DNA from: Prevotella nigrescens
GTDB taxonomy: Bacteria > Bacteroidota > Bacteroidia > Bacteroidales > Bacteroidaceae
Reading direction: 5' to 3'
Assembly (NCBI RefSeq): GCF_031191185.1
Contig: NZ_CP133465.1
Coordinates: 2,041,255-2,105,254 of the forward strand
Length of the DNA: 64,000 nt
The notes beneath the pieces were generated by a model. That model made no database searches. It was not told the DNA's origin and worked only from the letters and a program-made list of their open reading frames with translations. How positions within the stretch are numbered: position 1 is the first letter of the stretch; each line of letters opens with the position of its first letter. The translations under genes were made by a program, and so were the position numbers. Below, in pieces: positions 15,840 through 56,944 of this stretch.

Positions 15840-16016
15840 TATATTCCAACACTTTACAAAGTCTATTCTCTTAGTCTGTCAAACAGGCTCTTTTGCAATG
15901 CAAAAGAATGGTTTTTACCGGACAAAAACCATTGTTTTATCTTTCAATACCGCTGCTTTTGAAAAACAGAAAAGGATTTTCGGCTTTTCAACGCTGTTTT
16001 TGTTGTTTCGCAAGAA
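15840..16016 (+). repeat. 22-bp degenerate repeat array, locus 1
   Basis: Consecutive 22-bp units include 15884-15905 (CAGGCTCTTTTGC then AATGCAAAA), 15906-15927 and 15928-15949, with weaker units on both sides. The register is defined by a TTTT run in mid-unit and a terminal AAAA. The best unit contains the near-palindrome TTTTGCAATGCAAAA. The array lies between recQ and the outer membrane barrel gene, and no convincing protein is encoded in it. Confidence 0.7.
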
Positions 16017-16118
16017 TATCAGATTATTTCCCAAATGTCAAAACACACGGTTGCGAACTTCCCATTTCATACTTGCATAATCCCTGCATTCCTACAGCTA
16101 AAGCAGTAAGATAATGGT

Positions 16119-16155
16119 AAAAAGAAACCGCCCTTTCCAAACTGGAAGAGCGGTT
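16119..16155 (-). terminator. Rho-independent terminator after recQ
   Basis: On the minus strand the stem AACCGCTCTTCC pairs with GGAAAGGGCGGTT around a short loop, followed by TCTTTTT. It lies 12 bp past the recQ stop. Confidence 0.85.
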
Positions 16156-16166
16156 GAGAGTGCCTG

Positions 16167-18350
16167 TTAGTTTGCCATCTCGGATATAAACTTTATGCGA
16201 ATCAACCGAATATCGTCTTCGGTATAGTCATCGTCGAGTTCCTTGAGAGCCTCGTCGATGTTGTCGGTATGGCTGTTCATAAAGTAATCGTAGATGTCGT
16301 CTATCTTGTCTTCATCGTAAATGTCCCTCAAGAAGTAGTCTATGTTGAGCTTTGTGCCACTATACACGATTTCTTCTATCTTTGAAAGCAGTTCGTCGAA
16401 GCTGAGTCCTTCGGCAACGGCAATGTCGTCTAACGGCAATTTGCGATCAATATCTTGAATAATCTTCACTTTCTGCATCGATTTCTTAGCCACGGTGCGC
16501 ACGCGCAGTTCTTCGGGACGCTCTATGTTCTTTTCCTTGCAGTATTTTTTTATGAGTTCGCAGAACTCCTTTCCGTAACGTTTTGCCTTGCCCACGCCCA
16601 CGCCTTGTATGTTTTGCAGTTCCTCTTCCGTAATGGGATACATCATAGCCATTTGGTCTAACGATGGGTCTTGGAAGATAACGTAAGCCGGAATGCCTAA
16701 CTTGCGTGCCAAATGCTTGCGCAGGTCTTTCAGCATAGCATAGAGTTCGGGGTCGGCAACACTTGTTCCGCCTACCATACTTTCGTCTATTTCATCGGTT
16801 TTGAACTCTTTGTCCATTACAATCATAAACGACTTCGGTTCTTTCAAGAATTGTTTTCCAGCTGCGGTGAGTTTCAGTAGACCATAGTTTTCTACATCTT
16901 TCTTTAAATAGCCTTCCAACATGGCTTGCCGAATAACGGGGTTCCATATCTTCGGATTTTCCTTTTCACCGAGTCCAAATTCTTCGAGCAAATTGTGTTT
17001 ATGGTCTTTTATATCGTCAGTACCACGCCCCTTGACAAAGTCTATGACATATTCTTGGCGGAAATTTCCGCCTAAAGCCTTCACTGCTTGCAATACAATC
17101 AATAGCGGTTGCTTTGCTTCAATCTTCTCTTTCGGGTGCAGACAGTTGTCGCACATACCGCAATTGTCTTTCGTATATTCTTCGCCAAAGTAGTGGAGCA
17201 GCAGTTTGCGGCGACAAACCGACGATTCGGCGTATGTTTCGGTCTCTTGCAGCAGCTGTCTGCCTATGTCTTGCTCAGCAACGGGCTTGCCTTCCATAAA
17301 GTTTTCGAGCTTCTTGAGGTCGTTTTTCGAGTAGAAAACAATACATTTGCCTTCTTCTCCGTCGCGTCCCGCACGCCCTGTTTCCTGGTAATAGCCTTCC
17401 AGACTCTTTGGAATATCGTAGTGGATAACGAACCGGACATCGGGTTTGTCGATGCCCATACCGAAAGCAATGGTTGCAACAATGACGTCGATGTTTTCCA
17501 TCAGGAAGTCGTCTTGCGTCTTCGAACGCGTTTCCGAGTCGAGACCGGCATGGTATGGTGCTGCCTTTATGTCGTTGGCTTGCAACACGGCAGCCAGTTC
17601 CTCAACCTTCTTGCGTGAAAGGCAGTAGATGATACCGCTCTTTCCGAGATTTTGCTTGATGAATTTGATAATCTGACGGTTGGTGTCTTCCTCGTTCTTC
17701 TTGGGCCGTACCTCGTAGTAAAGGTTAGGACGATTGAACGAACTCTTGAATTCGGCACAGTCTTCAATGCCCAAACTCTTCACGATATCTGTGCGTACCT
17801 TGTCGGTAGCTGTAGCAGTGAGGGCTATTATCGGTGCTTTGCCAATCTGGTCTATAGCTTGTCGTATCTTCCTATACTCCGGTCGGAAGTCGTGTCCCCA
17901 CTCCGAGATACAGTGCGCCTCGTCTATCGCATAGAAACTGACCTTTACTGTCTTGAAGAATTCTATGCTTTCCTCTTTGTTTAGCGACTCCGGTGCAACA
18001 TAAAGCAACTTCGTCTTGCCGTTCTGAATGTCGGCTTTAACGTTGTCAATCTCTGTTTTCTTCAACGATGAGTTTAGATAATGCGCCACACCATCTTCTT
18101 CGCTGATACCATTAATGACATCTACTTGATTTTTCATCAATGCTATCAGAGGGGAAATAACGATAGCCGTGCCTTCCATTATGAGTGAAGGCAATTGATA
18201 GCAAAGGCTCTTGCCGCCACCCGTAGGCATCAGCACGAAAGTGTCGTTGCCAGCTAATACGTTGCGGATAATAGCCTCTTGTGCGCCCTTGAACTTATCA
18301 AAGCCGAAAAAGTGCTTTAGCTTTTCTGTAAGATTGACTTCTTTTGCCAT
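16167..18350 (-). CDS. recQ: ATP-dependent DNA helicase RecQ
   Basis: This is a 3'-5' superfamily 2 helicase of recombination and repair, 727 aa. It has Walker A MPTGGGKS (41-48), DEAH (143-146), SALTATA-like ALTATATDKV, and the helicase motif RAGRDG. The RQC zinc cluster carries cysteines in CRRKLLLHYFG and CGMCDNC. A winged-helix region leads to an HRDC domain (about 530-610, with IQGVGVGKAKRYG). The C-terminal 100 residues are an acidic helical extension seen in Bacteroidetes RecQ. It lies downstream of clpX and has its own terminator at 16119-16155. Confidence 0.96.
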   Translation of the reverse strand: MAKEVNLTEKLKHFFGFDKFKGAQEAIIRNVLAGNDTFVLMPTGGGKSLCYQLPSLIMEGTAIVISPLIALMKNQVDVINGISEEDGVAHYLNSSLKKTEIDNVKADIQNGKTKLLYVAPESLNKEESIEFFKTVKVSFYAIDEAHCISEWGHDFRPEYRKIRQAIDQIGKAPIIALTATATDKVRTDIVKSLGIEDCAEFKSSFNRPNLYYEVRPKKNEEDTNRQIIKFIKQNLGKSGIIYCLSRKKVEELAAVLQANDIKAAPYHAGLDSETRSKTQDDFLMENIDVIVATIAFGMGIDKPDVRFVIHYDIPKSLEGYYQETGRAGRDGEEGKCIVFYSKNDLKKLENFMEGKPVAEQDIGRQLLQETETYAESSVCRRKLLLHYFGEEYTKDNCGMCDNCLHPKEKIEAKQPLLIVLQAVKALGGNFRQEYVIDFVKGRGTDDIKDHKHNLLEEFGLGEKENPKIWNPVIRQAMLEGYLKKDVENYGLLKLTAAGKQFLKEPKSFMIVMDKEFKTDEIDESMVGGTSVADPELYAMLKDLRKHLARKLGIPAYVIFQDPSLDQMAMMYPITEEELQNIQGVGVGKAKRYGKEFCELIKKYCKEKNIERPEELRVRTVAKKSMQKVKIIQDIDRKLPLDDIAVAEGLSFDELLSKIEEIVYSGTKLNIDYFLRDIYDEDKIDDIYDYFMNSHTDNIDEALKELDDDYTEDDIRLIRIKFISEMAN

Positions 18351-18444
18351 TTTAATCGTTTAGTGTCCCTTATATAGAAAGGTAGGTTTGTTATCGTCGC
18401 ACCCACACCATTGAAGTGGAGTGAGTGCAACGTTCGTATGTGTT

Positions 18445-19677
18445 TCAGGCTGTTTCGAGTTTGTTGAGCTTCGCTTTGTCCAATTGTTGTTGTGCATATT
18501 GGGCGGTTACCTCGTACTTCTTCACTTTCTTTGAAGGCAGTTCAAACATCGTATCCATCATAACTGCCTCGACAATAGAGCGAAGTCCACGTGCACCCAA
18601 CTTGTATTCCACAGCCTTATCAACGATATAGTCGAGCGATTCTTCGGTAAATGTAAGGCTGATGCCGTCCATTTTGAAGAGTTTTATGTATTGCTTGACT
18701 ATCGAGTTCTTTGGTTCGACAAGTATTTTGCGCAGTGCTTCCTTGTCTAATGGGTTGAGATAGGTAAGCACAGGCAGACGTCCGATGATTTCGGGGATAA
18801 GTCCGAACGAGCGTAAGTCTTGCGGAAGCACGTACTTCATTAAGTCCTTCTTGTCTATTTTCGCCACATTCTGCACTGAGTTGTAGCCTACGACGTGCGT
18901 ATTGAGGCGTTGTGCTATCTTGCGTTCTATGCCGTCGAATGCGCCACCGCAGATAAAGAGAATGTTTCGCGTATCTACGTGAATGTAATCTTGGTCCGGG
19001 TGCTTGCGTCCGCCCTTTGGTGGAACGTTCACCATCGTGCCTTCGAGCAGCTTCAGCAGTCCTTGCTGCACACCTTCGCCGCTTACATCGCGTGTAATGC
19101 TTGGGTTGTCGCTCTTTCGTGCTATCTTGTCTATCTCGTCGATGAATACAATTCCCCGTTCGGCAGCAGCCACATTGTAGTCGGCTACCTGCAGCAAGCG
19201 CGAGAGAATGCTCTCCACATCTTCGCCCACATAGCCTGCTTCGGTGAACACGGTAGCATCGACAATGGTGAAGGGAACGTTCAACAGCTTGGCTATGGTA
19301 CGTGCCAAAAGGGTTTTTCCCGTACCTGTTGAGCCCACCATAATGATGTTGCTCTTCTCAACTTCTATGCCGTCGTCGTCCTTTGGCTGCTGCAATCGCT
19401 TGTAATGGTTGTAAACCGATACGGCGAGATAGCGTTTTGCTTCGTCCTGTCCGATGATATACTCATCAAGATAAGCCTTTATTTCTTTTGGCTTGGGCAC
19501 TTTGTTCATATCAATATCAGCTATGTCTGAACTTTGTTTGCCCAATACTCCTGATTCTACAACGATATTGTTGGCTTGCTGCGCACAGTCTTCGCAGATG
19601 TAACCTGTGAGTCCTGTGATGAGAAGCCGTACTTCGTTCTCGCTCCTTCCGCAAAAACTACATTTCTTCTGAGGCAT
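18445..19677 (-). CDS. clpX: ClpX, ATPase subunit of the ClpXP protease
   Basis: It unfolds substrates and feeds them to ClpP. The 410-aa product has an N-terminal zinc-binding domain ([11 protein letters not shown] and ICEDCAQQ), Walker A GSTGTGKT (about 115-122), Walker [12 protein letters not shown], and the sensor/C-domain ending in a basic tail. The ClpP-binding IGF-type loop is not obvious in the form IGF; a likely equivalent is LRSFGLIPE. It starts 3 bp after clpP, so the two are co-transcribed. Confidence 0.97.
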
Positions 19678-19680
19678 TGT

Positions 19681-20346
19681 TTACTTCTTTCTGATTAATA
19701 CTTGGTCTATCATACCATAATCCTTAGCTTCCTCAGCCGTCATCCAATAGTTGCGGTCGCTGTCGTTCCATACCTTTTCGTAGGTCTGGTGAGAGTGGTT
19801 GCTGATAATGGTGTAGAGTTCCTTCTTGAACTTCATTATCTCTTTTGCCTCGATTTCGATGTCCGAAGCCTGACCTTGCACACCTCCAAGTGGCTGGTGT
19901 ATCATGACGCGGCTATGCGGCAATGCCGAACGCTTGCCCTCCTGACCCGCTACAAGCAATACGGCTGCCATAGAAGCTGCCATGCCAGTGCAGATGGTAG
20001 CTACGTCGCTGGAGATAAACTGCATGGTATCGTAGATGCCAAGTCCTGCCGTTACGCTTCCGCCGGGCGAGTTGATGTAGATGGAAATATCTTTCCCAGG
20101 GTCTACCGAGTCTAAATAGAGCAGCTGTGCCTGCAGTGTGTTGGCAGTATAGTCGTCAATTTGTGTGCCGAGGAAGATGATACGGTCCATCATTAAACGC
20201 GAGAACACGTCCATCTGTGTTACGTTCAACTGGCGTTCTTCCAATATATATGGATTAAGATATTGGTTCTGCATACTTGTAACCTCGTCTAACACCATGC
20301 CGTTCATACCCAGATGTTGGGTTGCATACTTTCTAAAATCGTTCAT
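19681..20346 (-). CDS. clpP: ClpP, proteolytic subunit of the ClpXP protease
   Basis: This is a cytoplasmic serine protease forming a double heptamer, 221 aa. The catalytic Ser125 is in GMAASMAA and His150 in RVMIHQPLGG; the Asp is probably in the NDSDRNYWM segment. The N-terminal 30 residues may include a propeptide. In many Bacteroidales tig precedes clpP; here tig is 34 kb away, and clpP instead has a long 5' spacer with a hairpin. Confidence 0.97.
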   Translation of the reverse strand: MNDFRKYATQHLGMNGMVLDEVTSMQNQYLNPYILEERQLNVTQMDVFSRLMMDRIIFLGTQIDDYTANTLQAQLLYLDSVDPGKDISIYINSPGGSVTAGLGIYDTMQFISSDVATICTGMAASMAAVLLVAGQEGKRSALPHSRVMIHQPLGGVQGQASDIEIEAKEIMKFKKELYTIISNHSHQTYEKVWNDSDRNYWMTAEEAKDYGMIDQVLIRKK

Positions 20347-20394
20347 TTTATATCCTTATATTATTTTAATTAGACAATAACAAAAAGCGAATAT

Positions 20395-20447
20395 CCTGCT
20401 TTTGTCCATTGCCTTGAATACAAAGACCGTGCCATTGCAAAAGCGGG
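20395..20447 (-). promoter_or_regulatory. Hairpin in the clpP leader
   Basis: CCTGCTTTTG at 20395-20404 pairs with CAAAAGCGGG at 20438-20447 with one mismatch. It lies between the candidate promoter and the clpP start, so the clpP mRNA would carry it about 50-100 bases before the AUG. It could affect translation or mRNA stability; no known riboswitch is recognised. Confidence 0.4.
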
Positions 20448-20466
20448 CGTCCTGTGTATTCTAACA

Positions 20467-20474
20467 CAAAGATA
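20467..20474 (-). promoter_or_regulatory. Candidate -7 box for clpP-clpX
   Basis: The minus strand reads TATCTTTG, matching TAnnTTTG, about 120 bp before the clpP start. Confidence 0.45.
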
Positions 20475-20765
20475 AGAAAAAAATGATAATTACTCAATAA
20501 AAAAACACTTTTTTAATTCTGTCAATTATAGTTTTTTCACCCTTTTGTTAGAAACAGAACCGTGCAGACCGTATTTCGGGTGGTTGATAATTGGTGATGA
20601 ATAAGCAAACGGTTTTACTTTATCCGGACAGGTGCATCTTCTTAGGCACTCTTCTGCCTCGCTTGCATTCAGTGTATCATAAACGAGGAAAAGGAAATAA
20701 AACCGTCAATATTTTTCATAAGCACAGATATTATATAATCATTTTATTATCAAGGTGTTATAAAA

Positions 20766-20897
20766 CCCATTCTTTCGTATTGCAAAGACATAGGTTTTCG
20801 TTCTTAATATCGGCTGTTTTGTAATGTGAAATATACACTTTTACTGTACAAAACCTACTCTTTTGTTCCGCGAAGATGCATATTTTGTAATGTATTG
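20766..20897 (+). repeat. 22-bp degenerate repeat array, locus 2
   Basis: Six contiguous 22-bp units run 20766-20787, 20788-20809, 20810-20831, 20832-20853, 20854-20875 and 20876-20897. Examples are CCCATTCTTTCGTATTGCAA(AG) and CCTACTCTTTTGTTCCGCGA(AG). The array is in the 700-bp spacer between the clpP promoter and a lipoprotein gene. Apart from the clpP leader, nothing else is seen in 20347-21046. Confidence 0.75.
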
Positions 20898-21046
20898 ATA
20901 GATAATAGGTTATATAAGGCATTGCTTCTTGAGAAATGTTTACAATTTTATGGACTCTGTTCTTCTTTGTTATAATGTATGTAGAGATAATAGAGCAATG
21001 GAGCAAGGTATTTGTTTGCTTAGAAATTTGAAACTATACACCAGTG

Positions 21047-21619
21047 TTATTTATCTGACCTGAACTTTCCATTTAAGAGGAGATAGTTGCTTTTCTTGAT
21101 AAGTATATTCTTATCGGGTATAGCAATCACCTTCCTTAAGATAATTTTCTTGTCGCCCGTAATCGTATAATCTATATAGCAATTTTCTATTCCCCCTTTC
21201 CATTGAATGTTCTTTGCCGTGTAGATAAGTAATTTGTCTGTCAGTCTATACTTACTGTCTAATGCACAAAGAAAGAACCGTCCTTCGCCAACTCGATTGT
21301 TTGCAAAGATTAAAAGCAAGTGGGTATTGTCGGCAGAAGGCAGTTTGGCAACGTGGCAATTGCTCAAATCAGTTTCTTTGTCTACGAAAGTAGCGATTAA
21401 CGGCATTGCTTCTTCACTCGGAATGATTGTCTCTGGCAAGTCTATAATAAAGTCGTAGGAGTATTTGAATGGGAATTTTATGGTTGGAATACGCTTGTAA
21501 AAAGCTGCGAATGTTTCTTTCTGGAGCGACATAACGGCTGTGGGAACAATGGCTTTCCTTGCACTACAGCTACAAGAAATTATCAATAATACGAGAGAAA
21601 GAAGTGCTATACGAACCAT
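21047..21619 (-). CDS. Lipoprotein of unknown function, third gene of the surE-lpxB operon
   Basis: The 190-aa product has a lipoprotein signal (VLLIISC, lipidated Cys16). The mature part mixes strands and basic residues, with motifs HLLLIFANNRVGEGRFFLCA and ILRKVIAIPDKN. It follows lpxB by 7 bp and is probably co-transcribed, which suggests an envelope role. No family is recognised. Confidence 0.75.
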   Translation of the reverse strand: MVRIALLSLVLLIISCSCSARKAIVPTAVMSLQKETFAAFYKRIPTIKFPFKYSYDFIIDLPETIIPSEEAMPLIATFVDKETDLSNCHVAKLPSADNTHLLLIFANNRVGEGRFFLCALDSKYRLTDKLLIYTAKNIQWKGGIENCYIDYTITGDKKIILRKVIAIPDKNILIKKSNYLLLNGKFRSDK

Positions 21620-21626
21620 GTTCTTA

Positions 21627-22766: not shown

Positions 22767-22817
22767 TCTTCAGACGGTTATTGTTAATTTATTAATGAAA
22801 GAGAGTTGTATTTGGGC

Positions 22818-23591: not shown

Positions 23592-23613
23592 AAATTTTAT
23601 TTTCTTTTGCCTG

Positions 23614-23621
23614 CAAAAATA
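23614..23621 (-). promoter_or_regulatory. Candidate -7 box for surE-lpxB
   Basis: The minus strand reads TATTTTTG (TAnnTTTG) 23 bp before the surE ATG. It supports the shorter surE start. Confidence 0.4.
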
Positions 23622-23663
23622 CGAAAAAAGGTTTATAAATATAGCTTTCTCGCTTAAAATATG

Positions 23664-23671
23664 TATCTTTG
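23664..23671 (+). promoter_or_regulatory. Candidate -7 box for parA
   Basis: The plus strand reads TATCTTTG (TAnnTTTG) 30 bp before the parA ATG. It is divergent from the surE box. Confidence 0.5.
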
Positions 23672-23701
23672 TCGGCAAAACAAGTATAGGAAAAGAATAA
23701 A

Positions 23702-24469: not shown

Positions 24470-24511
24470 GAAAAACCTACTGAACCTCTTTAAGACTTAC
24501 CAACAGAAACG

Positions 24512-25420: not shown

Positions 25421-25443
25421 TGGAAAGTATAATTAAAAGTTAA

Positions 25444-30027: not shown

Positions 30028-30233
30028 CCGGAACAGCAACGGAGTTGCTCCAATTGTCGCTTCGGGGTTGCGGCAATCATCGCTTCGGGGTTACGGCAAT
30101 CATCGCTTCGGGGTTACGACAATCGTCGCTTCGGGGTTACGGCAATCGTCGCTTCGGGGTTACGGCAATTGTCGCTTCGGGGTTACGGCAAACGTCGCTG
30201 TGGGACATCGGTAAACACGGCTGTTTGCTGATG
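30028..30233 (+). repeat. 23-bp tandem repeat array, locus 1
   Basis: Six good 23-bp units begin at 30051, 30074, 30097, 30120, 30143 and 30166; each reads CAATCGTCGCTTCGGGGTTA plus CGG with one or two changes. A degenerate unit stands at each side (30028-30050 and 30189-30211). The array opens with AACAGC (30032-30037) and closes with TAAACACGGCTGTT (30212-30225), so the ends are inverted. The period is not a multiple of three, so the arginine/glycine-rich open frames across it are artefacts. It lies in the 772-bp spacer after rel. Confidence 0.9.
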
Positions 30234-35150: not shown

Positions 35151-35286
35151 TTAAAAGTAAAAAATATATGTTCAGTTGTCCACAAGGAGTTTTATAGTGG
35201 CAATTTTATACACCTTATTTTATAGATGAAAGGAAGCTGATAAAGATGTAAAGACTTTTCAGAAGTTTATCTTTAGCTTAATCCAT

Positions 35287-35462
35287 TTATTATCAGAACA
35301 TTGCAAAAACGGATATTTCGCATCACAAAAGTGGTTGTTTTGCGTGGTAAAAACGGCTCTTTTCTGTCTAAAAACAGCCGCTTTCGCAACCTCAAAGCGC
35401 AATTGTCTCTTTTTGACATGTTTATCTTTACAAAACCAAAGGGAATTTTTGGCATTCTCTTT
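35287..35462 (+). repeat. 22-bp degenerate repeat array, locus 3
   Basis: Eight units keep a 22-bp register from 35287 to 35462. Strong ones are 35309-35330 (ACGGATATTTCGCATCACAA(AA)), 35331-35352 (GTGGTTGTTTTGCGTGGTAA(AA)) and 35375-35396. The array lies between the divergent DUF177 operon and the 35776 gene. A TATTTTTG box at 35593-35600 could start transcription of the latter; otherwise 35107-35775 holds nothing recognisable. Confidence 0.75.
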
Positions 35463-39532: not shown

Positions 39533-39690
39533 ACGAATCGTCTTCTCAACAGCTGTTAAAATCGCTTCGGAGTTACGGCAATCATCGCTTCGGGGTTACG
39601 GCAATCGTCGCTTCGGGGTTACGGCAATCGTCGCTTCGGGGTTACGACAATCGCCGCTACGGGGTTACGATAAACACAGCTGTTCTGATG
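39533..39690 (+). repeat. 23-bp tandem repeat array, locus 2
   Basis: Five 23-bp units begin at 39556, 39579, 39602, 39625 and 39648, with the same sequence as the array at 30028-30233 (CGCTTCGGGGTTACGG plus CAATCGT). It also opens with AACAGC (39548-39553) and closes with TAAACACAGCTGTT (39671-39684). It fills most of the 312-bp gap between the PorV-like gene and the 37891-39453 gene. Confidence 0.9.
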
Positions 39691-47468: not shown

Positions 47469-47644
47469 TAAATCTCCTTCATTTTGTGAAGATAATTCTC
47501 TTAAAAACGATAATTGCGTTTTGACGTTGCGAAAGATGCTCTTTTGTGATGCAAAAAGTTTGGGTTCTACGAATAGACAAGATTAAGGAGCGACATATTC
47601 TGCTCTCTTTTGTATTGCATAGACGTGCGCTTCAAAATACGAAT
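47469..47644 (+). repeat. 22-bp degenerate repeat array, locus 4
   Basis: Units in a 22-bp register include 47469-47490, 47513-47534 (ATTGCGTTTTGACGTTGCGA(AA)), 47535-47556 (GATGCTCTTTTGTGATGCAA(AA)) and, two periods later, 47601-47622 (TGCTCTCTTTTGTATTGCAT(AG)). The left part, AAGATAATTCTCTTAAAAACGATA, resembles the flanks of loci 5 and 6. The array ends where the -33 element of the topoisomerase promoter begins. Confidence 0.7.
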
Positions 47645-47675
47645 TTGCATGGTTCGAGTTTTCTTCGTACCTTTG
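47644..47675 (+). promoter_or_regulatory. Bacteroidetes-type promoter for the topoisomerase IV operon
   Basis: TTTG at 47644-47647, a 20-bp spacer and TACCTTTG at 47668-47675 match both elements of the housekeeping consensus. Transcription would begin near 47682, about 25 bp before the start codon. It is the best promoter in the window. Confidence 0.7.
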
Positions 47676-47706
47676 AGCCTCAAAAATAGATACAATCCAA
47701 CTGTTT

Positions 47707-50544
47707 ATGGACGACGACAAGATAATTGAAAACAATGGGGAGGAAAGCCCATTGGACGAAGAAACAACGGGTAATGACGGCAATATGGCAGACACAGAAA
47801 GCGATGAGGAAGTGTTTGCCGATGCAGAAATGACGGACGAAAACGAAGCGGACGAGTTGCGAAACGACTATGTTCCAACCGACAGATTCGATGCTTCGGC
47901 TGTCAAGCACCTATCGGGAATGTATAAAAACTGGTTCTTGGATTACGCAAGTTATGTAATCTTGGAACGTGCCGTGCCCCATATCGACGACGGATTGAAG
48001 CCTGTTCAACGCCGTATTCTCCACTCTATGAAGCGAATGGACGACGGACGGTACAACAAAGTAGCCAATATTGCAGGCCATACGATGCAGTTTCACCCAC
48101 ACGGCGATGCTTCTATCTGCGATGCCCTCGTGCAAATGGGACAGAAAGACCTGCTCATCGACACGCAAGGAAACTGGGGAAACATCTTCACTGGCGACCG
48201 TGCTGCGGCTCCCCGATACATCGAATCGCGTCTTTCTAAGTTTGCATTGGAGACCATTTTCAACCCCAAAACCACCGAATGGCAGCAATCTTACGATGGC
48301 AGAAACAAAGAACCCGTTACCCTACCTGCCAAATTTCCATTGCTGTTGGCGCAAGGTGCGGAGGGTATAGCTGTTGGATTGTCGTCTAAAATCCTTCCGC
48401 ACAATATGGCAGAGATATGCGATGCCGCCGTAAGCTATCTGCGCGGAAAGAAGTTTGAGCTTTATCCAGACTTCCCAACAGGCGGCAGCATCGACATTTC
48501 AAAGTACAACGACGGACAACGTGGCGGTTCCTTGAAGGTACGTGCCAAGGTTGAGAAGATTGACAACAAGACGCTTGTCATTCGCGAAATACCTTTCACC
48601 AAGACTGCAAGTTCGCTTCAAGAGTCGATTACCAAAGCTGTTGAAAAGGGAAAAATAAAGATACGCAAGGTAGAAGATATGACGGCGTCGGAAGTGGAGA
48701 TACAATTACACCTGACACCAGGCACTTCGAGCGACAAGACAATGGACGCTTTGTACGCCTTTACCGACTGCGAGATTTCCATTTCGCCCAACTGTTGTGT
48801 CATTGCCGATAACAAACCGCAGTTCCTGACCGTTTCTGACGTACTGAAACACTCGGTAGACCACACGCAAGCACTGTTGCGCAGGGAACTCGAAATAAGG
48901 AAGGGCGAGTTGGAAGAACAGCTCTTCTTCAACTCATTAGAGCGCATATTCATAGAGGAGCGCATCTATAAGGAACAGAAGTTCGAGACTTCTAAAACAA
49001 TGGACGAGGTGGTTGCTTTCGTCGATTCCAAGCTGGAACCTTTTAAAAAGGACTTCATTCGTGAAGTGAAACGCGAGGACATACTCCGCTTGCTCGAGAT
49101 AAAGATGCAGCGCATTCTTAAATTCAACAAGGACAAAGCCGACGAATTAATCCAAAAGATAGAAGCCGAGATAGCCGAAATAGACAAGGACCTCAGCGAA
49201 ATGGTACGTGTAACCATCGAATGGTTCAAGCATTTGAAGGCAAAGTACGGCAAGGACTACCCACGCCGCACGGAGATAAAGAGTTTCGATACCATTGTTG
49301 CTGCAAAGGTAGTAGACGCCAACGAGAAGCTATACATCGACCGAAAGGGCGGCTTCATAGGCACCGACTTGAAGAAAGCAGAGTTCGTTCAGAACTGTTC
49401 TGACCTTGACGACGTTATCGTTTTCTTCCGCGACGGCAAGTATCGCATCATTCATATTGCCGACAAGGTGTTTGTTGGCAAGGGCGTTATGCACGTGCAA
49501 GTGTTCAAGCGCAACGACCGCCGTACCATTTACAATGCGGTTTATCGCGACGGCGAAAAAGGTCCTTACTACATAAAGCGTTTCAATGTGGTTTCCATTA
49601 CCCGCGACAGGGATTACGACCTTACGCAAGGAAAACCGGGTTCGAGAGTGTTTTACTTTACGGCAAACCCGAACGGAGAAGCCGAAACCATCAAGATTAT
49701 ACTGAAAGACCAACCTGGCAGGGCACGGTTGATGCGCTATTTCGAGCGCGATTTCTCTAATGTGCTTATCAAATCGAAGACTGCACGTGGCGTGTTGCTT
49801 ACGAAAGAAACCGTAGACCGTGTATCTTTAAAAGCACACGGAGTATCTACCTTGGGTGGCAGAAAGGTGTGGTTCGACGCCGATGTCAATCGTATCAACT
49901 ACGAAGAGCAGGGTCGTTTGTTGGGCGAATTTAACGATAAGGACACCATTCTTGTAGTTCTCGACAATGGAGAGTTCTACACTACCAACTTCGATGCTGC
50001 CAATCACTACGAAGACAACATCTTCCGCATCGAGAAATTCGACCCTGAAAAGCCATGGACAGCGGTGGTTTACGATGCCGACAACAACGGTTATCCATAC
50101 TTAAAGCGTTTCTGTATGGAAAATTCGACACGCCATCAGAGTGTGATTGGCGACAATCCGAAGTCCAAACTCGTATTCCTGACCGACGATGCCTACCCTC
50201 GTGCAGAGATAACGTACGGCGGAAGCGATGCAGCACGTGGCACGGAAGTGATAGATGCCGAAGAGTTTGTGGGCGTAAAAGGTTTCAAGGCAAAGGGCAA
50301 ACGTCTTACAACCTTCAAAGTAAGCAAGATTAAACAACTCGAGCCCATTCGTTTCCCAGAATCGGAAGAGGCTGAAGAAATCGAAACAGTAGAACCTACG
50401 GAAGCCGAAACGATAGAGGAACAGCCTGCAAAGCAAGCTGAACCCGGAGCACAAGCACCGTCGGAACCTGTCACAAAGACTGAAAAACCGAAGGAAGACA
50501 ACGGTGGAGAACAACAGTTGAGTCTACAATTCTCTGACAATTAA
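47707..50544 (+). CDS. parC: DNA topoisomerase IV subunit A
   Basis: The 945-aa type IIA topoisomerase subunit separates replicated chromosomes with its ParE partner, which is not encoded here. It has an acidic N-terminal extension of about 60 residues, the breakage-reunion domain (DGLKPVQRRIL, HPHGDASICDALVQMG, QGNWGN) with the active-site Tyr171 in AAAPRYIESRLS, a coiled-coil arm (about 385-500), a C-terminal beta-pinwheel and a Glu/Pro-rich tail. QGNWG points to ParC rather than GyrA. The DUF3316 gene follows 7 bp on. Confidence 0.9.
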   Translation: MDDDKIIENNGEESPLDEETTGNDGNMADTESDEEVFADAEMTDENEADELRNDYVPTDRFDASAVKHLSGMYKNWFLDYASYVILERAVPHIDDGLKPVQRRILHSMKRMDDGRYNKVANIAGHTMQFHPHGDASICDALVQMGQKDLLIDTQGNWGNIFTGDRAAAPRYIESRLSKFALETIFNPKTTEWQQSYDGRNKEPVTLPAKFPLLLAQGAEGIAVGLSSKILPHNMAEICDAAVSYLRGKKFELYPDFPTGGSIDISKYNDGQRGGSLKVRAKVEKIDNKTLVIREIPFTKTASSLQESITKAVEKGKIKIRKVEDMTASEVEIQLHLTPGTSSDKTMDALYAFTDCEISISPNCCVIADNKPQFLTVSDVLKHSVDHTQALLRRELEIRKGELEEQLFFNSLERIFIEERIYKEQKFETSKTMDEVVAFVDSKLEPFKKDFIREVKREDILRLLEIKMQRILKFNKDKADELIQKIEAEIAEIDKDLSEMVRVTIEWFKHLKAKYGKDYPRRTEIKSFDTIVAAKVVDANEKLYIDRKGGFIGTDLKKAEFVQNCSDLDDVIVFFRDGKYRIIHIADKVFVGKGVMHVQVFKRNDRRTIYNAVYRDGEKGPYYIKRFNVVSITRDRDYDLTQGKPGSRVFYFTANPNGEAETIKIILKDQPGRARLMRYFERDFSNVLIKSKTARGVLLTKETVDRVSLKAHGVSTLGGRKVWFDADVNRINYEEQGRLLGEFNDKDTILVVLDNGEFYTTNFDAANHYEDNIFRIEKFDPEKPWTAVVYDADNNGYPYLKRFCMENSTRHQSVIGDNPKSKLVFLTDDAYPRAEITYGGSDAARGTEVIDAEEFVGVKGFKAKGKRLTTFKVSKIKQLEPIRFPESEEAEEIETVEPTEAETIEEQPAKQAEPGAQAPSEPVTKTEKPKEDNGGEQQLSLQFSDN

Positions 50545-50551
50545 AGTTATT

Positions 50552-51370: not shown

Positions 51371-52389
51371 TGAAAAAGTATAAACGCCCCTTCCGCCACA
51401 CAGCTTTTGTGCTTGCATACACATTATTTATAATGTCGTTCCTCTCGTCTTGCGTTACCAACGACGAATACCCGAACACCGTTCAGGGCAATGCCGAGGC
51501 ACTTTGGAAGATACTCGACGAGCACTATTGCTTCTTTGAGCAGAAAGGAATAGACTGGAATGCGGTGCGAAACAAGTACTTAAAGCAGTTCGACAACTCG
51601 ATGACAGAACGCCAACAGTTTGAAGTTATGGCAAATATGCTGTCCGAACTGAAAGACGGACACGTGAATCTATACACCTCTTTCAATGCTGCACGCTATT
51701 GGTCGTGGCGCGAAGACTATCCGCAGAACTATTCCGACTCGCTCTTGCGTAAATACTTGAAAACCGATTACTTGATAGCGAGCGGATTGGACTATACCAT
51801 TCTCGACGACAACATTGGCTATTTGCGTTGCGAAAGTTTCCAACGTGGAATAGGAGCGGGCAACCTCAACGACATTCTTCTCTACTTCCAACCGTGCAGA
51901 GCCCTTATCATAGATGTGCGAAACAATGGCGGAGGTGCGCTTAACAATGCGGAGGAACTGGCTGCAAGGTTCACCAACAAGTCGGTACTTGTAGGCTATA
52001 TGCAACACAAAACGGGGAAAGGGCACAACGATTTTTCACCATTGAAGCAGCAAATCTTAAAGCCTGGGAAGGGCATACGTTGGCAAAAGCCTGTGTTCGT
52101 ACTGACCAACCGCAGCGTTTTCTCGGCTGCCAACGAGTTTGTAAAGTATATGCGCTGCTTCCCGAATGTGAAGACGGTGGGCGACCGCACTGGCGGAGGA
52201 GCAGGATTGCCTTTCTCTGCCGAGCTTCCCAATGGCTGGTCGGTGCGCTTTTCAGCTTGTCCGATGTACGACAAGGACAAGCAAATGACCGAATTTGGCA
52301 TAGACCCAGACTATAAGGTAGACCTTACTTCCGAAGATTTTCATCGTGGCAAAGACACCATCATAGAGTTTGCGCGCCACCTTATATAA
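51370..52389 (+). CDS. S41-family peptidase lipoprotein
   Basis: The 339-aa product starts at the ATG at 51370, which overlaps the DUF3316 stop. It has a lipobox (FIMSFLSSC). The S41 (tail-specific protease) fold is indicated by ELKDGHVNLYT, IGYLRCESF, ALIIDVRNNGGG, and the nucleophile region LTNRSVFSAANEF. There is no PDZ domain of usual size between the N-terminal helices and the catalytic core. It is probably attached to the outer membrane; the substrate is unknown. A longer open frame from 51046 overlaps DUF3316 and is rejected. Confidence 0.85.
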   Translation: MKKYKRPFRHTAFVLAYTLFIMSFLSSCVTNDEYPNTVQGNAEALWKILDEHYCFFEQKGIDWNAVRNKYLKQFDNSMTERQQFEVMANMLSELKDGHVNLYTSFNAARYWSWREDYPQNYSDSLLRKYLKTDYLIASGLDYTILDDNIGYLRCESFQRGIGAGNLNDILLYFQPCRALIIDVRNNGGGALNNAEELAARFTNKSVLVGYMQHKTGKGHNDFSPLKQQILKPGKGIRWQKPVFVLTNRSVFSAANEFVKYMRCFPNVKTVGDRTGGGAGLPFSAELPNGWSVRFSACPMYDKDKQMTEFGIDPDYKVDLTSEDFHRGKDTIIEFARHLI

Positions 52390-52516
52390 TAATAAGGTAA
52401 GCTGCTTTTACGGAACCGTCAATACTCTTTTGGGATATTGATTTTCCTTTTCTTGCTTGAGACGGCCGCTGAAAATATGTTTGACTTTGTAAAGATAATT
52501 TTATTAAAAAGTGATA

Positions 52517-52604
52517 GCTGCGTTTTTGCATTCTAAAAGCGGTTGTTTCGCTTTGTAAAACCTATGCTATTGCCGTATAAAACCTACACTTTTGCAATGC
52601 AAAA
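52517..52604 (+). repeat. 22-bp degenerate repeat array, locus 5
   Basis: Four contiguous units (52517-52538, 52539-52560, 52561-52582, 52583-52604) end in AAAA; the fourth is CCTACACTTTTGCAATGCAA plus AA. To the left is AAAGATAATTTTATTAAAAA then GTGATA, shared with locus 6. The array lies in the 641-bp spacer before fhs, which otherwise holds only the fhs promoter; a 62-codon minus-strand frame at 52737-52925 has no support. Confidence 0.8.
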
Positions 52605-52935
52605 CAATGAGTCTTATAACGCATTGGTATTAGGCAGGTTATACAAGAAATATGTTATGACAAAATATTTACAGCCTTACGGCTTTCTTTTCGCTCCTGA
52701 AATGAATCGTTCCTGCTAAATCTCTACAGTCTTGTTTCAATGCTTTTTGAATAAGTTTGTGTGTCTTTTCATTAGTGTGGACAAGTCTGTGGTAAGTGTC
52801 CGAAGCCACCACAACAAAGCCGTTGTTATTTCCCTATAGTCTGCTATATTGCTATCTACAGTTTGCAATACCGTTGCACAATGTTCTAAAAATGTGCTAT
52901 TATGTATTTTTTTGTACAAAAACATGGGTAAAAAG

Positions 52936-52966
52936 TTGGTAGTAAGCTATAAAATTCATACTTTTG
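52936..52966 (+). promoter_or_regulatory. Candidate promoter for fhs
   Basis: TTGG at 52936-52939, a 19-bp spacer and TACTTTTG at 52959-52966 match the Bacteroidetes consensus. The start codon is 64 bp further on. Confidence 0.55.
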
Positions 52967-53030
52967 GCAACAAATAACAACTAACTATAAGCAGTTAACA
53001 CTAATAATTTTAAAAACGAAGAACGAACAA

Positions 53031-54698
53031 ATGAAAACAGATTTTGAGATTGCTCACGAGGCAAAACTTGAATTAATTGATAGTATTGCAAAGAAGGCAA
53101 ATATCCCAACGGACGAGATTGAACCATTTGGCAAGCACATTGCTAAAGTTCCTTACCGACTTATCGACGAGGAAAAGGTAAAGAAGTCGAAGCTGATTCT
53201 TGTTACTGCCATTACTCCAACAAAGGCAGGTATCGGCAAAACAACCGTCAGTGTAGGCTTGGCATTGGGTATGAACCGCATCGGCAAGAATGCAATACCA
53301 GCTCTTCGCGAGCCTTCGCTCGGTCCATGCTTCGGTATGAAGGGGGGAGCTGCAGGTGGTGGCTATGCACAAGTGCTGCCAATGGAGAAGATAAACCTAC
53401 ATTTCACAGGCGATTTTCATGCCATTACTTCGGCTAACAATATGATTTCAGCCCTGTTGGACAACTATCTGTACCAGCATCAGGACGATGGTTTCGGTAT
53501 GAAGGAAATATGGTGGCGTCGCGTTTTAGACGTAAACGACCGCAACCTGCGCACCATTATCACGGGTTTGGGTGGTCGTACCGATGGTTTGCTTAGCGAA
53601 AGTGGGTTCGACATCACACCGGCATCAGAGATTATGGCTATTCTCTGCTTGGCTTCTGACGAAGAAGACTTGTACCGTCGCCTTGATAACATTATTCTTG
53701 GCATCACGCTTGAAAACAAGCCGCTCTACTTGCGCGACCTGAATGTTACAGGTTCTATCGTTGCTCTCCTGCATGAAGCCATCAACCCGAACCTCGTGCA
53801 GACCATCGAAAATACACCGGCGTTCATACACGGCGGTCCATTTGCCAACATCGCACACGGTTGTAACAGCATTTTGGCAACCAAGATGGCTATGAGCTGC
53901 TCTGATTACTGTATTACGGAGGCTGGTTTCGGTGCCGATTTGGGCGCAGAGAAGTTCTTGGACATTAAGTGTCGCAAGGCAGGAATATCTCCTGTACTTA
54001 CAGTTCTCGTTGCTACTGCACAGGCTTTGAAGATGCACGGCGGTATCGATGTTGCAGAAATCAGCAAGCCAAACGTAGAAGGCTTGAAGGCAGGTCTTCC
54101 GAACTTGGACAAGCACATCGCCAACTTGAAGGCATTCGGACAAACCGTTGTGGTCTGCTTGAACCGCTTTGCCACCGACACCGACGAAGAATTGGCACTC
54201 GTAAAAGAACATTGCGAGGCTCAGGGTGTAGGCTTCGCCATCAACACAGCCTTTGGCGAAGGTGGAAAAGGTGCAGAAGAATTAGCACATCTGGTAGTCG
54301 ATACCATCGAAAAGAAACCATCTGCACCGCTGAACTTCGTTTACGAAGAGAACGACGACATTGTTACAAAGGTTGAAAAGATAGCTAAAAAGATTTACGG
54401 AGCTGGAAAAGTGGTGCTGCGCCCTGCTGCTAAACGAGACTTGCAGCGCATTAAGGAACTCGGTTTCGAGAACTTCCCCGTATGTATTGCCAAGACACAG
54501 TACTCGTTTTCTGAAGATGCGAAGGCTTACGGAGTACCAACCGACTTCACCATTACCATTCGCGACTTCGTCATCAACGCCGGCGCAGGCATGATTGTAG
54601 CCATCGCCGGTACCATAATGCGTATGCCTGGTTTGCCGAAAAAGCCACAGGCAGAGAATATCCACGTAGTGAATGGCGTAATAGAAGGCTTGTCATAA
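53031..54698 (+). CDS. fhs: Formate--tetrahydrofolate ligase
   Basis: It makes 10-formyl-tetrahydrofolate from formate, ATP and tetrahydrofolate for purine and one-carbon metabolism. The 555-aa product has the P-loop [12 protein letters not shown] (61-72), the family signature [14 protein letters not shown], and [20 protein letters not shown]. It is complete and of usual length. Its own promoter and terminator make it monocistronic. Confidence 0.97.
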
Positions 54699-54718
54699 AG
54701 CATTATCCATAACTTGCG

Positions 54719-54755
54719 AGCCTCGGAGAACGTTGATGTTTTTCGAGGCTTTTTG
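54719..54755 (+). terminator. Rho-independent terminator after fhs
   Basis: AGCCTCG (54719-54725) pairs with CGAGGCT (54744-54750), followed by TTTTG. It lies 20 bp after the fhs stop. Confidence 0.75.
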
Positions 54756-54867
54756 CTGTTTTACAATCTCACCAATATACAATTGGTTACAAAGACAAAT
54801 AAATAAGGCTATTTATTAAAAATGTTTTTTTTCTATATATATATTATGTAGTTAGGTAAAATTTAAG

Positions 54868-54875
54868 TAACTTTG
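54868..54875 (+). promoter_or_regulatory. Candidate -7 box for tig
   Basis: TAACTTTG matches TAnnTTTG. The leader to the start codon would be about 80 bases. Confidence 0.5.
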
Positions 54876-54961
54876 CGACTTAAAGTGGGTGAAAGCCTTA
54901 TCATTCCACCTCTAAAACTCAACAATTGATAATTAAATAATAAATATATAATACTTCAAAG

Positions 54962-56404
54962 ATGAAAATTTCATTTGAAAATCCCGACAAACTGAATGGT
55001 CTTTTGACCATTGTTGTCGAAGAAGCAGATTACAAGGAAGAAGTTGAGAAGGCACTCAAAGACTATCGCAAGCGTGCAAATATTCCAGGTTTCCGTCCGG
55101 GACAAGTGCCAATGGGGTTGCTGAAACGCCAAGTTGGTCCACAAGTAAAGATGGATGCCATTAATAAAATCTTGGGTGAAAATCTTCAGAAATATATTGT
55201 AGACAACAAAATACATATGCTCGGACAACCTATGGCTTCTGAAACACAAGAAGCAGTAGAGCTTGAAAAGCCGGCTCCCTATACTTTTAAGTTCGACATC
55301 GCTATTGCACCGGAATTCAATATCGAACTTACAAGTAAGGATACTATTGACTACTACGATATAAAGGTAGACGACAAGCTCATTGACAAGCAGGTGGAAA
55401 TGTTCGCAAACCGTGCAGGACATTACGACAAGACGGAAGAATTCGACCCCGAAAAGCGTGATATGCTCAAGGGAGACCTTCGTGAACTCGATGAAAAAGG
55501 CAATACACTCGAAGGTGGTATCACCGTGGAAGGTGCTGTAATGATGCCTCAATATATTAAGGTAGAAGACCAAAGAAAACTTTTCGATGGCAGTAAGCTG
55601 GGCGATATTATCACTTTCAACCCACGCAAGGCCTATCCCGAAAATGACATAGAGATTGCTTCATTGTTGAAAATCGACCGTAAGGAGGTTGAAAAACATA
55701 CCGGCAACTTCTCATATCAGATTACTGAAATTACTCGCTTCGTAAATGCAGAGAACAATAAGGAGCTTTGGGACAGCGTTTACGGTCCGGACGCAAACAT
55801 CAACGACGAGGCTGCATTCCGTGCTGCCATTGCTGAAGGTGTAAGCAAGCAGCTCGAAAGAGACTCTGACTACCAGTTTATGATAGATGTACGTGCTTAT
55901 GCAGAGAAGAAAGTGGGCGACTTGCAATTTCCAGACGCGCTGTTGAAACGCATCATGCTTGCCAACAACAAAGACAAAGGTGCTGAATTTGTAGAGAAGA
56001 ACTACGAGGCAAGCATCAAGGAACTTAAGTGGCACCTCGTCAGAGACCAAATAGCAAAGGCTAACAACGTTAAGGTTGAAGACACCGACATACGCGAAAG
56101 TGCTGCACAGATGGCGCGTGCACAGTTTGCACAATACGGCATGAACAACGTTCCTGACGAATACGTGAACAACTACGTTGAGGAAATGATGAAGAAGCAC
56201 GAGAACATCGACTCATTCATTGAGGCTGCACTCGACCGTAAGCTCTCTGTTGCATTGAAATCTATTGTCAAGTTGAAGAAGAAGTCTGTTTCTCTCGACG
56301 AATTCAACAAGCTCATGATGCCTGCAGAAGAGGCTGCAGCAGAAAAGCCAGCAAAGGCAAAGAGAACCAAAAAGGCTGACAAAGCTGAAAAGGAAGAAAA
56401 GTAA
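54962..56404 (+). CDS. tig: Trigger factor
   Basis: This ribosome-bound chaperone meets nascent chains at the exit tunnel. The 480-aa product has the ribosome-binding signature IPGFRPGQVPMGLL (about 42-55), a reduced PPIase-like middle (about 145-250) and a long helical C-terminal domain; the tail is Lys/Ala/Glu-rich. The middle lacks a clear FKBP active site, so isomerase activity may be weak. Its usual neighbours clpP and clpX are 34 kb away. It has its own promoter and a strong terminator. Confidence 0.94.
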   Translation: MKISFENPDKLNGLLTIVVEEADYKEEVEKALKDYRKRANIPGFRPGQVPMGLLKRQVGPQVKMDAINKILGENLQKYIVDNKIHMLGQPMASETQEAVELEKPAPYTFKFDIAIAPEFNIELTSKDTIDYYDIKVDDKLIDKQVEMFANRAGHYDKTEEFDPEKRDMLKGDLRELDEKGNTLEGGITVEGAVMMPQYIKVEDQRKLFDGSKLGDIITFNPRKAYPENDIEIASLLKIDRKEVEKHTGNFSYQITEITRFVNAENNKELWDSVYGPDANINDEAAFRAAIAEGVSKQLERDSDYQFMIDVRAYAEKKVGDLQFPDALLKRIMLANNKDKGAEFVEKNYEASIKELKWHLVRDQIAKANNVKVEDTDIRESAAQMARAQFAQYGMNNVPDEYVNNYVEEMMKKHENIDSFIEAALDRKLSVALKSIVKLKKKSVSLDEFNKLMMPAEEAAAEKPAKAKRTKKADKAEKEEK

Positions 56405-56466
56405 GCCAATGCCTACAAACCATTAACGCTTGTGCCCTGCACAGCAAATAATGGGTATAGAATAAT

Positions 56467-56530
56467 AAAAGCAATATCCTTTCCACAAACTTTCAAACAA
56501 GAAAGCTGTTGGAAAGGATATTGCTTTTTT
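56467..56530 (+). terminator. Long rho-independent terminator after tig
   Basis: AAAAGCAATATCCTTTCC (56467-56484) pairs perfectly with 56511-56528, an 18-bp stem, followed by TT. The loop contains a second small hairpin (CTTTC/GAAAG). Confidence 0.9.
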
Positions 56531-56812
56531 ATGTTTTACAGAGTATTGCCCAGTCTTTTAAATAATAGAAACGCAGGTTCAGCAGAATTTTATTTCAGAA
56601 AATAATTTTCTTTTTTTATTGCTAAAGTCAGAAACAGAAAGTATATTCAATACGCAAAACATAAATTCTATAATTTGCATTACAGATAAGGGCGTAATTT
56701 TATCACGGTTCTGACACTACTTCGTGGTCAATAGCAATTATATGGCACCCATAATTTAAGTAAAACAAAACAACCTTCATTCAAGCAAAGATAATTTAAT
56801 TTAAAAGTGATA

Positions 56813-56944
56813 GGAATGTATTTGTGTTGTGAAAGCATTGGTTTTACATTATAAAACAGCCGATATTGCAACGCAGAAATACAGTTGCTGCTTTTAAACA
56901 GAATATTCTTTACAAAGCAAAAATTGTCTTTAGCGTCTATCGCA
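56813..56944 (+). repeat. 22-bp degenerate repeat array, locus 6
   Basis: Six units keep a 22-bp register (56813-56834, 56835-56856, 56857-56878, 56879-56900, 56901-56922, 56923-56944); the second is GCATTGGTTTTACATTATAA plus AA. The left flank AAAGATAATTTAATTTAAAA then GTGATA matches locus 5. The array lies in the convergent tig/dedA spacer, which otherwise holds only the two terminators. Confidence 0.7.

What the first reader, a model, noticed from the sequence alone, without database searches (positions are those of the whole stretch)
15840..56944. Family of dispersed intergenic arrays made of degenerate 22-bp units
Six spacers (15840-16016, 20766-20897, 35287-35462, 47469-47644, 52517-52604, 56813-56944) contain four to eight units each. 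The units differ greatly in sequence but keep an exact 22-bp register: a T-run in mid-unit, often TTTTGC or TTTCGC, and AAAA at the end. The best units contain the near-palindrome TTTTGCAATGCAAAA. Units vary more than within an ordinary tandem repeat, yet the phase is kept, even across weak units (47557-47600). This suggests selection on spacing (about two helical turns), as in arrays of protein-binding sites, rather than recent duplication. I know of no named element with this form.
Basis: seen in the sequence. Interest (0 to 1): 0.75.

Follow-up and report, generated by a model that had tools for sequence, protein, structure and literature searches.

The report
PINSR repeats: phased 22-bp palindrome arrays
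The scattered 22-bp arrays are the middle of a known but unexplained 190-bp repeat of oral Prevotella (PINSR), and its strict 11/22-bp spacing, mirror symmetry and predicted bend suggest a structure read as double-stranded DNA rather than leftover tandem copies.

Summary
In 310 sampled spacers, 85 of 87 pairs of unit cores 12-115 bp apart lie at exact multiples of 22 bp; shuffled spacers give a mean of 0.05 such pairs. The arrays are not nameless: they are the centre of PINSR, a "188-bp" intergenic repeat published in 2015 (PMC4755523). In this window two copies are full-length (35246-35435, 52485-52674), one is leader-leader, one looks tail-tail by eye, two are decayed. Not found in the held literature: (i) end-to-end length is 190 bp in 59 of 65 end pairs; of the six others three differ by 1 bp and three by multiples of 22; (ii) the unit is a dyad TTTTRYNNNRYAAAA plus a 7-nt linker, so A4/T4 tracts alternate about every 11 bp and strong bending is predicted; (iii) linkers 2 and 4 co-vary as reverse complements; (iv) the array frame with other linkers occurs outside the published clade, in P. 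aurantiaca as a full-length element. G-T and A-C mismatches in the stem are equal (44, 42), so neither strand is favoured as RNA. Most likely a DNA-level element: phased dyad sites on bent DNA for an unidentified dimeric protein. Four of six arrays sit at rearrangement breakpoints (suggestive).

The parts
35246..35435 (+).
   Evidence: 190-bp profile score 149 (best scores of 12 shuffled stretches -94 to -69); same site occupied in G017 and G443; gapless identity to G443 0.72
52485..52674 (-).
   Evidence: profile score 161; same site occupied in G017 and G443; gapless identity to G443 0.70
20703..20945 (.). Chimeric PINSR with a leader at both ends around the array 20766-20897
   Evidence: left leader score 54, inverted leader score 42, span 243; lies at a breakpoint against G017 and G443
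56781..56918 (.). Short PINSR remnant with tail-like sequence at both ends around the array 56813-56944
   Evidence: weak minus-strand profile hit 24 at 56781; right-end box at 56917; left tail read by eye; not called as a same-type pair; lies at a breakpoint
47469..47690 (-). Decayed PINSR: tail and array recognisable, leader end not, next to the DNA gyrase/topoisomerase IV subunit A gene starting at 47707; 22 bp longer than its G443 orthologue inside the array
   Evidence: alignment to G443 element C1:791507 (score 215); gene by Pfam PF00521
15799..15988 (+). Degenerate PINSR: leader and array recognisable, tail not
   Evidence: profile score 100; left end found alone; one-sided synteny with G017 element L115:5579
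15885..15906 (+). Best 22-bp unit of the window (AGGCTC TTTTGCAATGCAAAA G)
   Evidence: unit score 24.5
35328..35343 (+). Left arm of the predicted 16-bp stem (columns 83-98 of the element), carrying linker 2
   Evidence: consensus fold and pair tables; coordinates counted from 35246 = column 1
35369..35384 (+). Right arm of the predicted stem (columns 124-139), carrying linker 4
   Evidence: coordinates counted from 35246 = column 1

Best explanation
The arrays are copies, mostly worn, of PINSR, a non-coding dispersed repeat of about 190 bp. Shown: the element has a leader beginning with the box TGTAAAKATWWTTC, a central array of dyad-symmetric 15-bp cores (TTTTRYNNNRYAAAA) separated by 7-nt linkers, and a tail ending in an imperfect inverted copy of the box. 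The 22-bp unit is two 11-bp steps of alternating T4 and A4 tracts, so the element is predicted to be intrinsically bent. Linkers 2 and 4 keep each other's reverse complement, which closes a mirror-symmetric stem of about 16 bp. Length and register are kept while sequence turns over between species. Inferred: the element works as double-stranded DNA, a set of dyad sites on one face of a bent segment, bound by a dimeric protein that either organises the chromosome or moves the element. Also inferred: the dyad units let copies recombine in either orientation and leave chimeric scars.
For: Register. Fixed length: of end pairs found independently, 17 of 19 (G000) and 42 of 46 (G017) are exactly 190; of the six others three are 189 and three are 212, 146 and 124. 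P. aurantiaca end boxes span 186, 187, 186 and 186 in 4 of 5 arrays (PINSR box to box: 186); one of two G445 copies spans 164 = 186-22. Phasing and bend: A/T-tract period 10.75; predicted bend 134 and 124 degrees against 58 and 61 shuffled and 62 and 60 in other spacers. Linker 2:4 complementarity above permutation in all three PINSR genomes tested (0 of 5000; p 0.0028; p 0.0008). DNA rather than one-strand RNA: G-T 44 and A-C 42 in the stem, 113 copies x 16 pairs; consensus fold energy similar on both strands (-55.1, -57.3; 62 copies). Recombination: leader-leader scar, breakpoints at arrays.
Against: No binding protein or mobilising enzyme was found. Bending follows from phased tracts in a model whose parameters I recalled. 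Linker 3:4 pairing is below expectation in G443 and not in excess in G000 (p 0.28) or clearly in G017 (p 0.05); the best-of-two test (linker 4 with 2 or 3) shows no excess in G443 (6.38 against 6.37). P. histicola (23 arrays) and G012 (8 arrays) show no excess complementarity. The PINSR consensus (Fig. 4A) is not held, so letters were not compared; no element was found within 1.5 kb of the tnaA-like gene of G000, G017 and G445 (for G000 also 2.4 kb downstream). Copies with indels are less likely to be found by gapless profiles. Clear end boxes were seen in P. aurantiaca and one G445 copy but not in most arrays of the other species examined. The breakpoint association fades when only long spacers are compared (P 0.007 to 0.52).
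Confidence: 0.6

Rival explanations
1. Null: a dead, once-mobile repeat. All copies descend from fixed-length masters in a few waves with different linkers; register and complementarity are inherited, not selected.
For: Two linker vocabularies in G000, one mostly with good leaders and one with poor ones (by eye, and the listing printed before its script error); G017 copies are uniform in the array (mean identity 0.85); most window copies are degenerate; the paper finds about three quarters of sites shared by two strains.
Against: The two full-length window copies keep 190 bp without a gap at 0.72 and 0.70 identity to G443; P. aurantiaca keeps the length with different linkers; linker 2:4 pairing beats permutation within three genomes.
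Confidence: 0.25
2. A MITE-like or hairpin transposon moved in trans by a transposase that reads the imperfect inverted end boxes (TGTAAAKATWWTTC) or the central hairpin.
For: Inverted end boxes with 11 of 14 positions paired; of 8 G017 copies with two-sided synteny, 5 are absent in G000; hundreds of copies by extrapolation; patchy occurrence.
Against: No convincing target-site duplication among 58 copies; conserved sequence continues about 25 bp outside the left box and 15 bp outside the right one; size differences at the 5 unoccupied sites (241, 326, 460, 377 and -143 bp) do not equal the element; of 3 box-bounded stretches of 2.2-3.4 kb outside known elements, the 5 ORFs scanned carry no transposase domain; Y1 transposase not found in G000 and G017; the paper states that PINSR lacks terminal inverted repeats.
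Confidence: 0.2
3. A transcribed structure: intrinsic terminator, mRNA 3-prime stabiliser or small RNA at gene ends.
For: Long hairpin flanked by A and T tracts; copies lie nearer gene 3-prime ends (medians 109 and 113 bp) than 5-prime ends (278 and 191).
Against: No wobble asymmetry (44 vs 42); 11 of 79 copies lie between divergent genes, and so does the full-length copy at 35246; no Rfam match at any of the 11 copies in the 4 G017 stretches searched; orientation against genes differs between genomes.
Confidence: 0.12
4. An ordinary minisatellite or a BrickBuilt-type MITE as in Porphyromonas gingivalis.
For: Leader, tandem units and tail, intergenic, Bacteroidales (PMC4596501).
Against: 22 not 23 nt; unit number nearly fixed where BrickBuilt has 1 to 22.8; ends differ (GAGACCTTTGCA there).
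Confidence: 0.03

Closest known systems
[quoted passage not shown] 2015, PMC4755523; abstract and passages read)
   Same: About 188-190 bp, intergenic, many copies, P. intermedia-group hosts including P. falsenii, associated with rearrangements, element downstream of a tnaA-like gene in G443
   Different: The passages read do not mention 22-bp dyad units, fixed register, linker pairing, bending or inverted end boxes, and limit the repeat to four species; here P. aurantiaca has a full-length element, and the array frame (not shown to be the full element) occurs in P. pallens, bivia, histicola and others
BrickBuilt MITE of P. gingivalis (PMC4596501; abstract, passages, section 5 and part 1 of section 7 read)
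   Same: Intergenic leader-tandem repeat-tail elements of Bacteroidales
   Different: 23-nt units, 1 to 22.8 copies, IS5-type ends, 19 elements
REP/BIME and ERIC-type repeats of enterobacteria (recalled)
   Same: Intergenic, palindromic, hundreds of copies, near gene 3-prime ends
   Different: No RAYT-type (Y1) transposase found in G000 or G017; tandem dyads in a strict 22-bp register
About 11-bp periodicity of bacterial genomes (PMC4132750; start of abstract in a search listing)
   Same: A period of about 11 bp, read as helical phasing
   Different: Here concentrated in a discrete dispersed element

Membership tests
PINSR | 188-bp repeat unit | tested here: met
   190 bp between independently found ends in 17 of 19 and 42 of 46 pairs; the 2-bp difference from 188 is not explained
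PINSR | Consensus sequence of Fig. 4A | not testable with these tools
   Figure not held; supplements not available
PINSR | Present downstream of tnaA in P. intermedia ATCC 25611 | tested here: met
   G443 (unnamed relative, not shown to be that strain): element score 205, 228 bp downstream of the tnaA-like gene, which scores below the TIGR02617 cut-off. Not found at the same gene in G000, G017 and G445
PINSR | Present in P. falsenii | tested here: met
PINSR | 177-184 copies per P. intermedia genome | tested here: inconclusive
   Sampled density 41 per 864 kb in G000 (about 127 per genome) and 40 per 346 kb in G443 (about 310); stretches not random
PINSR | Restricted to the P. intermedia/nigrescens group | tested here: not met
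   As architecture it is wider: P. aurantiaca 186-187 bp box to box in 4 of 5 arrays; arrays in P. bivia, histicola, pallens and other genera. As strict PINSR consensus not tested
PINSR | No terminal inverted repeats | tested here: inconclusive
   Imperfect inverted end boxes, 11 of 14 positions paired, but conservation extends beyond them
BrickBuilt MITE | 23-nt unit and IS5-type ends GAGACCTTTGCA | tested here: not met
   22-bp unit, ends TGTAAAKATWWTTC
MITE in general | Target-site duplication | tested here: not met
   58 copies: exact matches reach z 3.7 at best among 261 window pairs with 4 or more matches, and the top-scoring window pair by identity has 0.29 against 0.25 among 15,686 window pairs; no convincing duplicate next to the ends
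REP with RAYT | Resident Y1 (PF01797) transposase | tested here: not met
   0 matches in G000 and G017; 12 of 25 genomes have one
Structured RNA | Wobble-biased compensation on one strand | tested here: not met
   G-T 44, A-C 42 of 1808 cells

The most novel reading that the evidence does not exclude
A genus-wide class of bent, mirror-symmetric DNA elements whose protein-contact frame (A4/T4 tracts every 11 bp, 22-bp dyads) is held constant while the 7-nt linkers drift to a species-specific vocabulary kept in complementary pairs. In effect it is a species-coded set of sites read by a co-evolving dimeric DNA-binding or recombining protein. Because each unit is a dyad, copies recombine in both orientations and reshuffle the chromosome, as the leader-leader and probable tail-tail scars in this window suggest.
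Probability: 0.2. Interest if true: 0.8.

Novelty: new variant of a known kind. Interest (0 to 1): 0.48.

Why it matters
PINSR was named in 2015 without a function. A fixed dyad register, predicted bend, paired linkers and the same frame in species not listed as carrying the repeat turn it into a testable object: there should be a protein that binds 22-bp dyads, and its specificity should change with the linker vocabulary. It could also explain why these repeats sit at chromosome rearrangements in oral Prevotella.

Tried and rejected
Tandem-repeat finder: listed none of the six arrays, which are too degenerate. First genome pattern used a 21-bp period by mistake and gave fewer hits (4 and 7) than its reversed control (19 and 20); repeated with 22. 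Column-wise mutual information on 44 aligned copies gave no stable helix; the linker permutation test replaced it. A leader hairpin that I suspected from single sequences had almost no excess pairing in 113 copies and is dropped. Target-site duplication: none convincing. Autonomous partner bounded by the end boxes: 11 box pairs in the G000 and G017 stretches, 3 outside known elements; 5 ORFs from these scanned, not every ORF of the third, no transposase domain. Y1 transposase: not found. Rfam: 4 G017 stretches with 11 copies, no copy matched. tnaA position in the window's own genome: no element. Of 8 pairs of G017 and G000 copies linked by synteny, 3 lie in opposite relative orientation and were not used as orthologues. 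An excision and re-insertion model for the 47.6-61.7 kb segment needs an element at a spacer (C|D) that is empty in both G443 and G017, so it is not claimed. Orientation bias against genes (14 vs 4 in G017, 12 vs 11 in G000) is not consistent. In 3 of 26 groups of fetched loci the array criterion found nothing.

Literature: the held library was searched; PINSR by name came up only in PMC4755523, and no listing pointed to its 22-bp structure; most subscription papers are not held.
Full report
1. The observation. The six spacers were read directly. A position matrix refined on them gives a unit CGGCTC-TTTTGCATTGCAAAA with most information in the T run, the G and C after it, and the A run. Lag-22 identity, pooled over the six, is 0.436 against 0.275 (sd 0.018) in dinucleotide shuffles. 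Single arrays range from clear (52517, 15840, 35287) to not significant (47469, p = 0.13); with all lags from 12 to 40 allowed, 20766 (0.052), 56813 (0.43) and 47469 (0.89) are not individually significant. The stronger test is genome-wide. In 310 spacers of the same genome, cores (at most 1 mismatch to TTTTRYNNNRYAAAA) number 146 against 30.9 in shuffles. Pairs 12 to 115 bp apart fall at 22, 44, 66, 88 and 110 bp 49, 24, 9, 2 and 1 times, and elsewhere twice; in shuffles 0.05 and 1.05. A first version on 464 kb gave 37/19/8/2/2 and 3 others.

2. A fixed-length element, not a free array. Flanks of arrays with good units share a left end (GTGTAAATATTTTTC...) and a right end (...GAATTATCTTTACAAAA). 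A gapless 190-bp profile finds 41 copies (score over 50) in 864 kb of G000 and 48 in 394 kb of G017; the best scores in 12 shuffled 20-kb stretches are -94 to -69. When left and right ends are searched separately, so that any distance could come out, G000 gives 17 pairs at 190 and 2 at 189 (9 left-only and 6 right-only ends), and G017 gives 42 at 190 and one each at 189, 212, 146 and 124 (5 left-only, 6 right-only). The last three differ from 190 by +22, -44 and -66.

3. Anatomy. A typical element has four good cores separated by 7-nt linkers, plus leader and tail. T4 and A4 tracts alternate with 7 nt between them, so 22 bp is two steps of 11 bp. The tract spectrum peaks at 10.75 bp, 6.2 and 5.1 times over shuffled. 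Predicted bend is 134 degrees (G017, 44 copies) and 124 (G000, 32 copies) against 58 and 61 shuffled, and 62 and 60 in 150 and 330 other spacer pieces (wedge parameters recalled). GC is about the same: elements 0.36 and 0.35, spacers 0.36 and 0.34. Consensus folding gives a stem of columns 83-98 with 124-139 on either strand. Linkers 2 and 4, which lie in that stem, are more often reverse complements within one copy than when copies are permuted: G443 5.97 against 5.09 (0 of 5000), G017 5.68 against 5.08 (p 0.0028), G000 3.88 against 3.12 (p 0.0008). Linker 3 with 4 is not: G443 is below expectation (3.65 against 4.62), G017 p 0.05, G000 p 0.28. Taking the better of the two partners, G017 and G000 exceed permutation but G443 does not (6.38 against 6.37). 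In other species P. bivia shows an excess (15 arrays, p 0.005), P. histicola (23, p 0.58) and G012 (8, p 0.77) do not. Mismatched stem cells are G-T 44 and A-C 42, so neither strand looks like a selected RNA. The two ends form imperfect inverted boxes (11 of 14 positions), but conservation runs about 25 bp further out on the left and 15 bp on the right.

4. What it is called. Naito et al. 2015 (PMC4755523; outline with abstract, passages) describe PINSR: 188 bp, intergenic, 177 and 184 copies in two P. intermedia strains, also in P. nigrescens, falsenii and disiens, most likely not coding, no terminal inverted repeats, at some rearrangement sites, function unknown. In G443, a relative whose blocks are 80-94% identical to the window, an element lies 228 bp downstream of the tnaA-like gene, where the paper reports one in ATCC 25611. 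G000 itself has none there. Fig. 4A is not held, so letters were not compared. I regard identity with PINSR as about 95% sure.

5. Beyond the published clade. Species use their own linkers, such as GATGCCC/GGGCATC in P. histicola, GATGACC/GGTCATC in P. bivia, ACCCCCT/AGGGGGT in P. pallens. P. aurantiaca, tested in the paper and not among its positive species, has end boxes 186, 187, 186 and 186 apart in 4 of 5 arrays examined (PINSR 186). In the other species most arrays showed no clear pair of end boxes, so there only the array frame, and in some a leader-like GTAAC-N5-GATTATCA, is seen. Of 398 genomes of the family, 58 have the three-core pattern with at most one mismatch: 52 in the window's own genus (G000 included) and 6 in five other genera. 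The reversed control is zero in most but has hits in 8 genomes and exceeds the pattern in four of them (G412, G423, G217, G362).

6. Evolution. Of 49 G017 copies, 41 had no two-sided synteny with the G000 stretches; of the other 8, two are present in G000, one is replaced by an array with other linkers at the same site, and five are absent. Of 42 G000 copies, 40 had no two-sided synteny and 2 are present. Those two pairs are about as alike as unrelated copies in leader and array (0.61 and 0.74, 0.72 and 0.62; means 0.66 and 0.75) and more alike in the tail (0.87 and 0.77; mean 0.65). Both window copies align with their G443 counterparts without a gap over the element, at 0.72 and 0.70 identity. 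That is the best evidence for selection on length, with the caveat that only recognisable copies are seen. Copies with a gene called on both sides: G017 16 convergent, 8 divergent, 18 codirectional; G000 11, 3, 23; spacers of 200 bp or more have about a quarter each convergent and divergent (simple ORF caller). 16 and 13 copies overlap ORFs called by that script; I take these for spurious, as the paper does for small CDSs over PINSR.

7. Rearrangement scars in this window. Window gene order against G017 breaks in spacers at 15.4-15.9, 20.6-21.6, 29.7-30.5, 47.3-47.6 and 56.6-57.1 kb. Four of these hold an array; the fifth holds a different, 23-bp repeat. 20703-20945 has a leader at both ends, the only same-type pair among 103 end pairs called in three genomes, and 56781-56918 looks tail-tail by eye. 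In G443 the spacer that joins 20.8 to 56.6 kb holds one ordinary element. Splitting one element into a leader half at 20.8 kb and a tail half at 56.8 kb fits this, but the second element needed is absent from both relatives, so the history is not proven. By chance the overlap has P from 0.007 to 0.07 for spacers of at least 20 to at least 200 bp, and 0.29-0.52 if only spacers of at least 300 or 400 bp count.

8. Reading. The simplest account is a known dispersed repeat whose centre is kept as a phased, bent, dyad-symmetric DNA segment. That it is read by a dimeric protein is inference. The null reading, inheritance from fixed-length masters without present function, is the main rival and needs strain-level indel counts.

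Noticed in passing
30051-30199 and 39562-39669: Two intergenic arrays of a GC-richer 23-bp unit (CAATCGTCGCTTCGGGGTTACGG, 92-94% matches), a separate repeat; the first lies in the one G017 breakpoint spacer without a PINSR. The region around the second also matches several places in G017.
   Followed up: partly
1696-1755: A different 22-bp periodic stretch (unit ATGAGACGTCATATTTATCAGA, 2.7 copies) at a gene end, not of the TTTTGC type.
   Followed up: no
L117 8289-8355 (G017): An Rfam FopS small RNA (RF04319) about 165 bp from a PINSR copy at 7935-8124.
   Followed up: no
L178 6691-6800: An array with the same register in a contig binned as Treponema UBA4328, possibly a misbinned contig.
   Followed up: no
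L027: A G000 copy in which the tail sequence appears at both ends, a second candidate chimera; read by eye only.
   Followed up: no
G443 C1:758.7-759.2 kb and G017 C82:73.1-73.6 kb: A conserved spacer with several copies of TTTACGTGTAAATAA-like palindromes, another short repeat.
   Followed up: no
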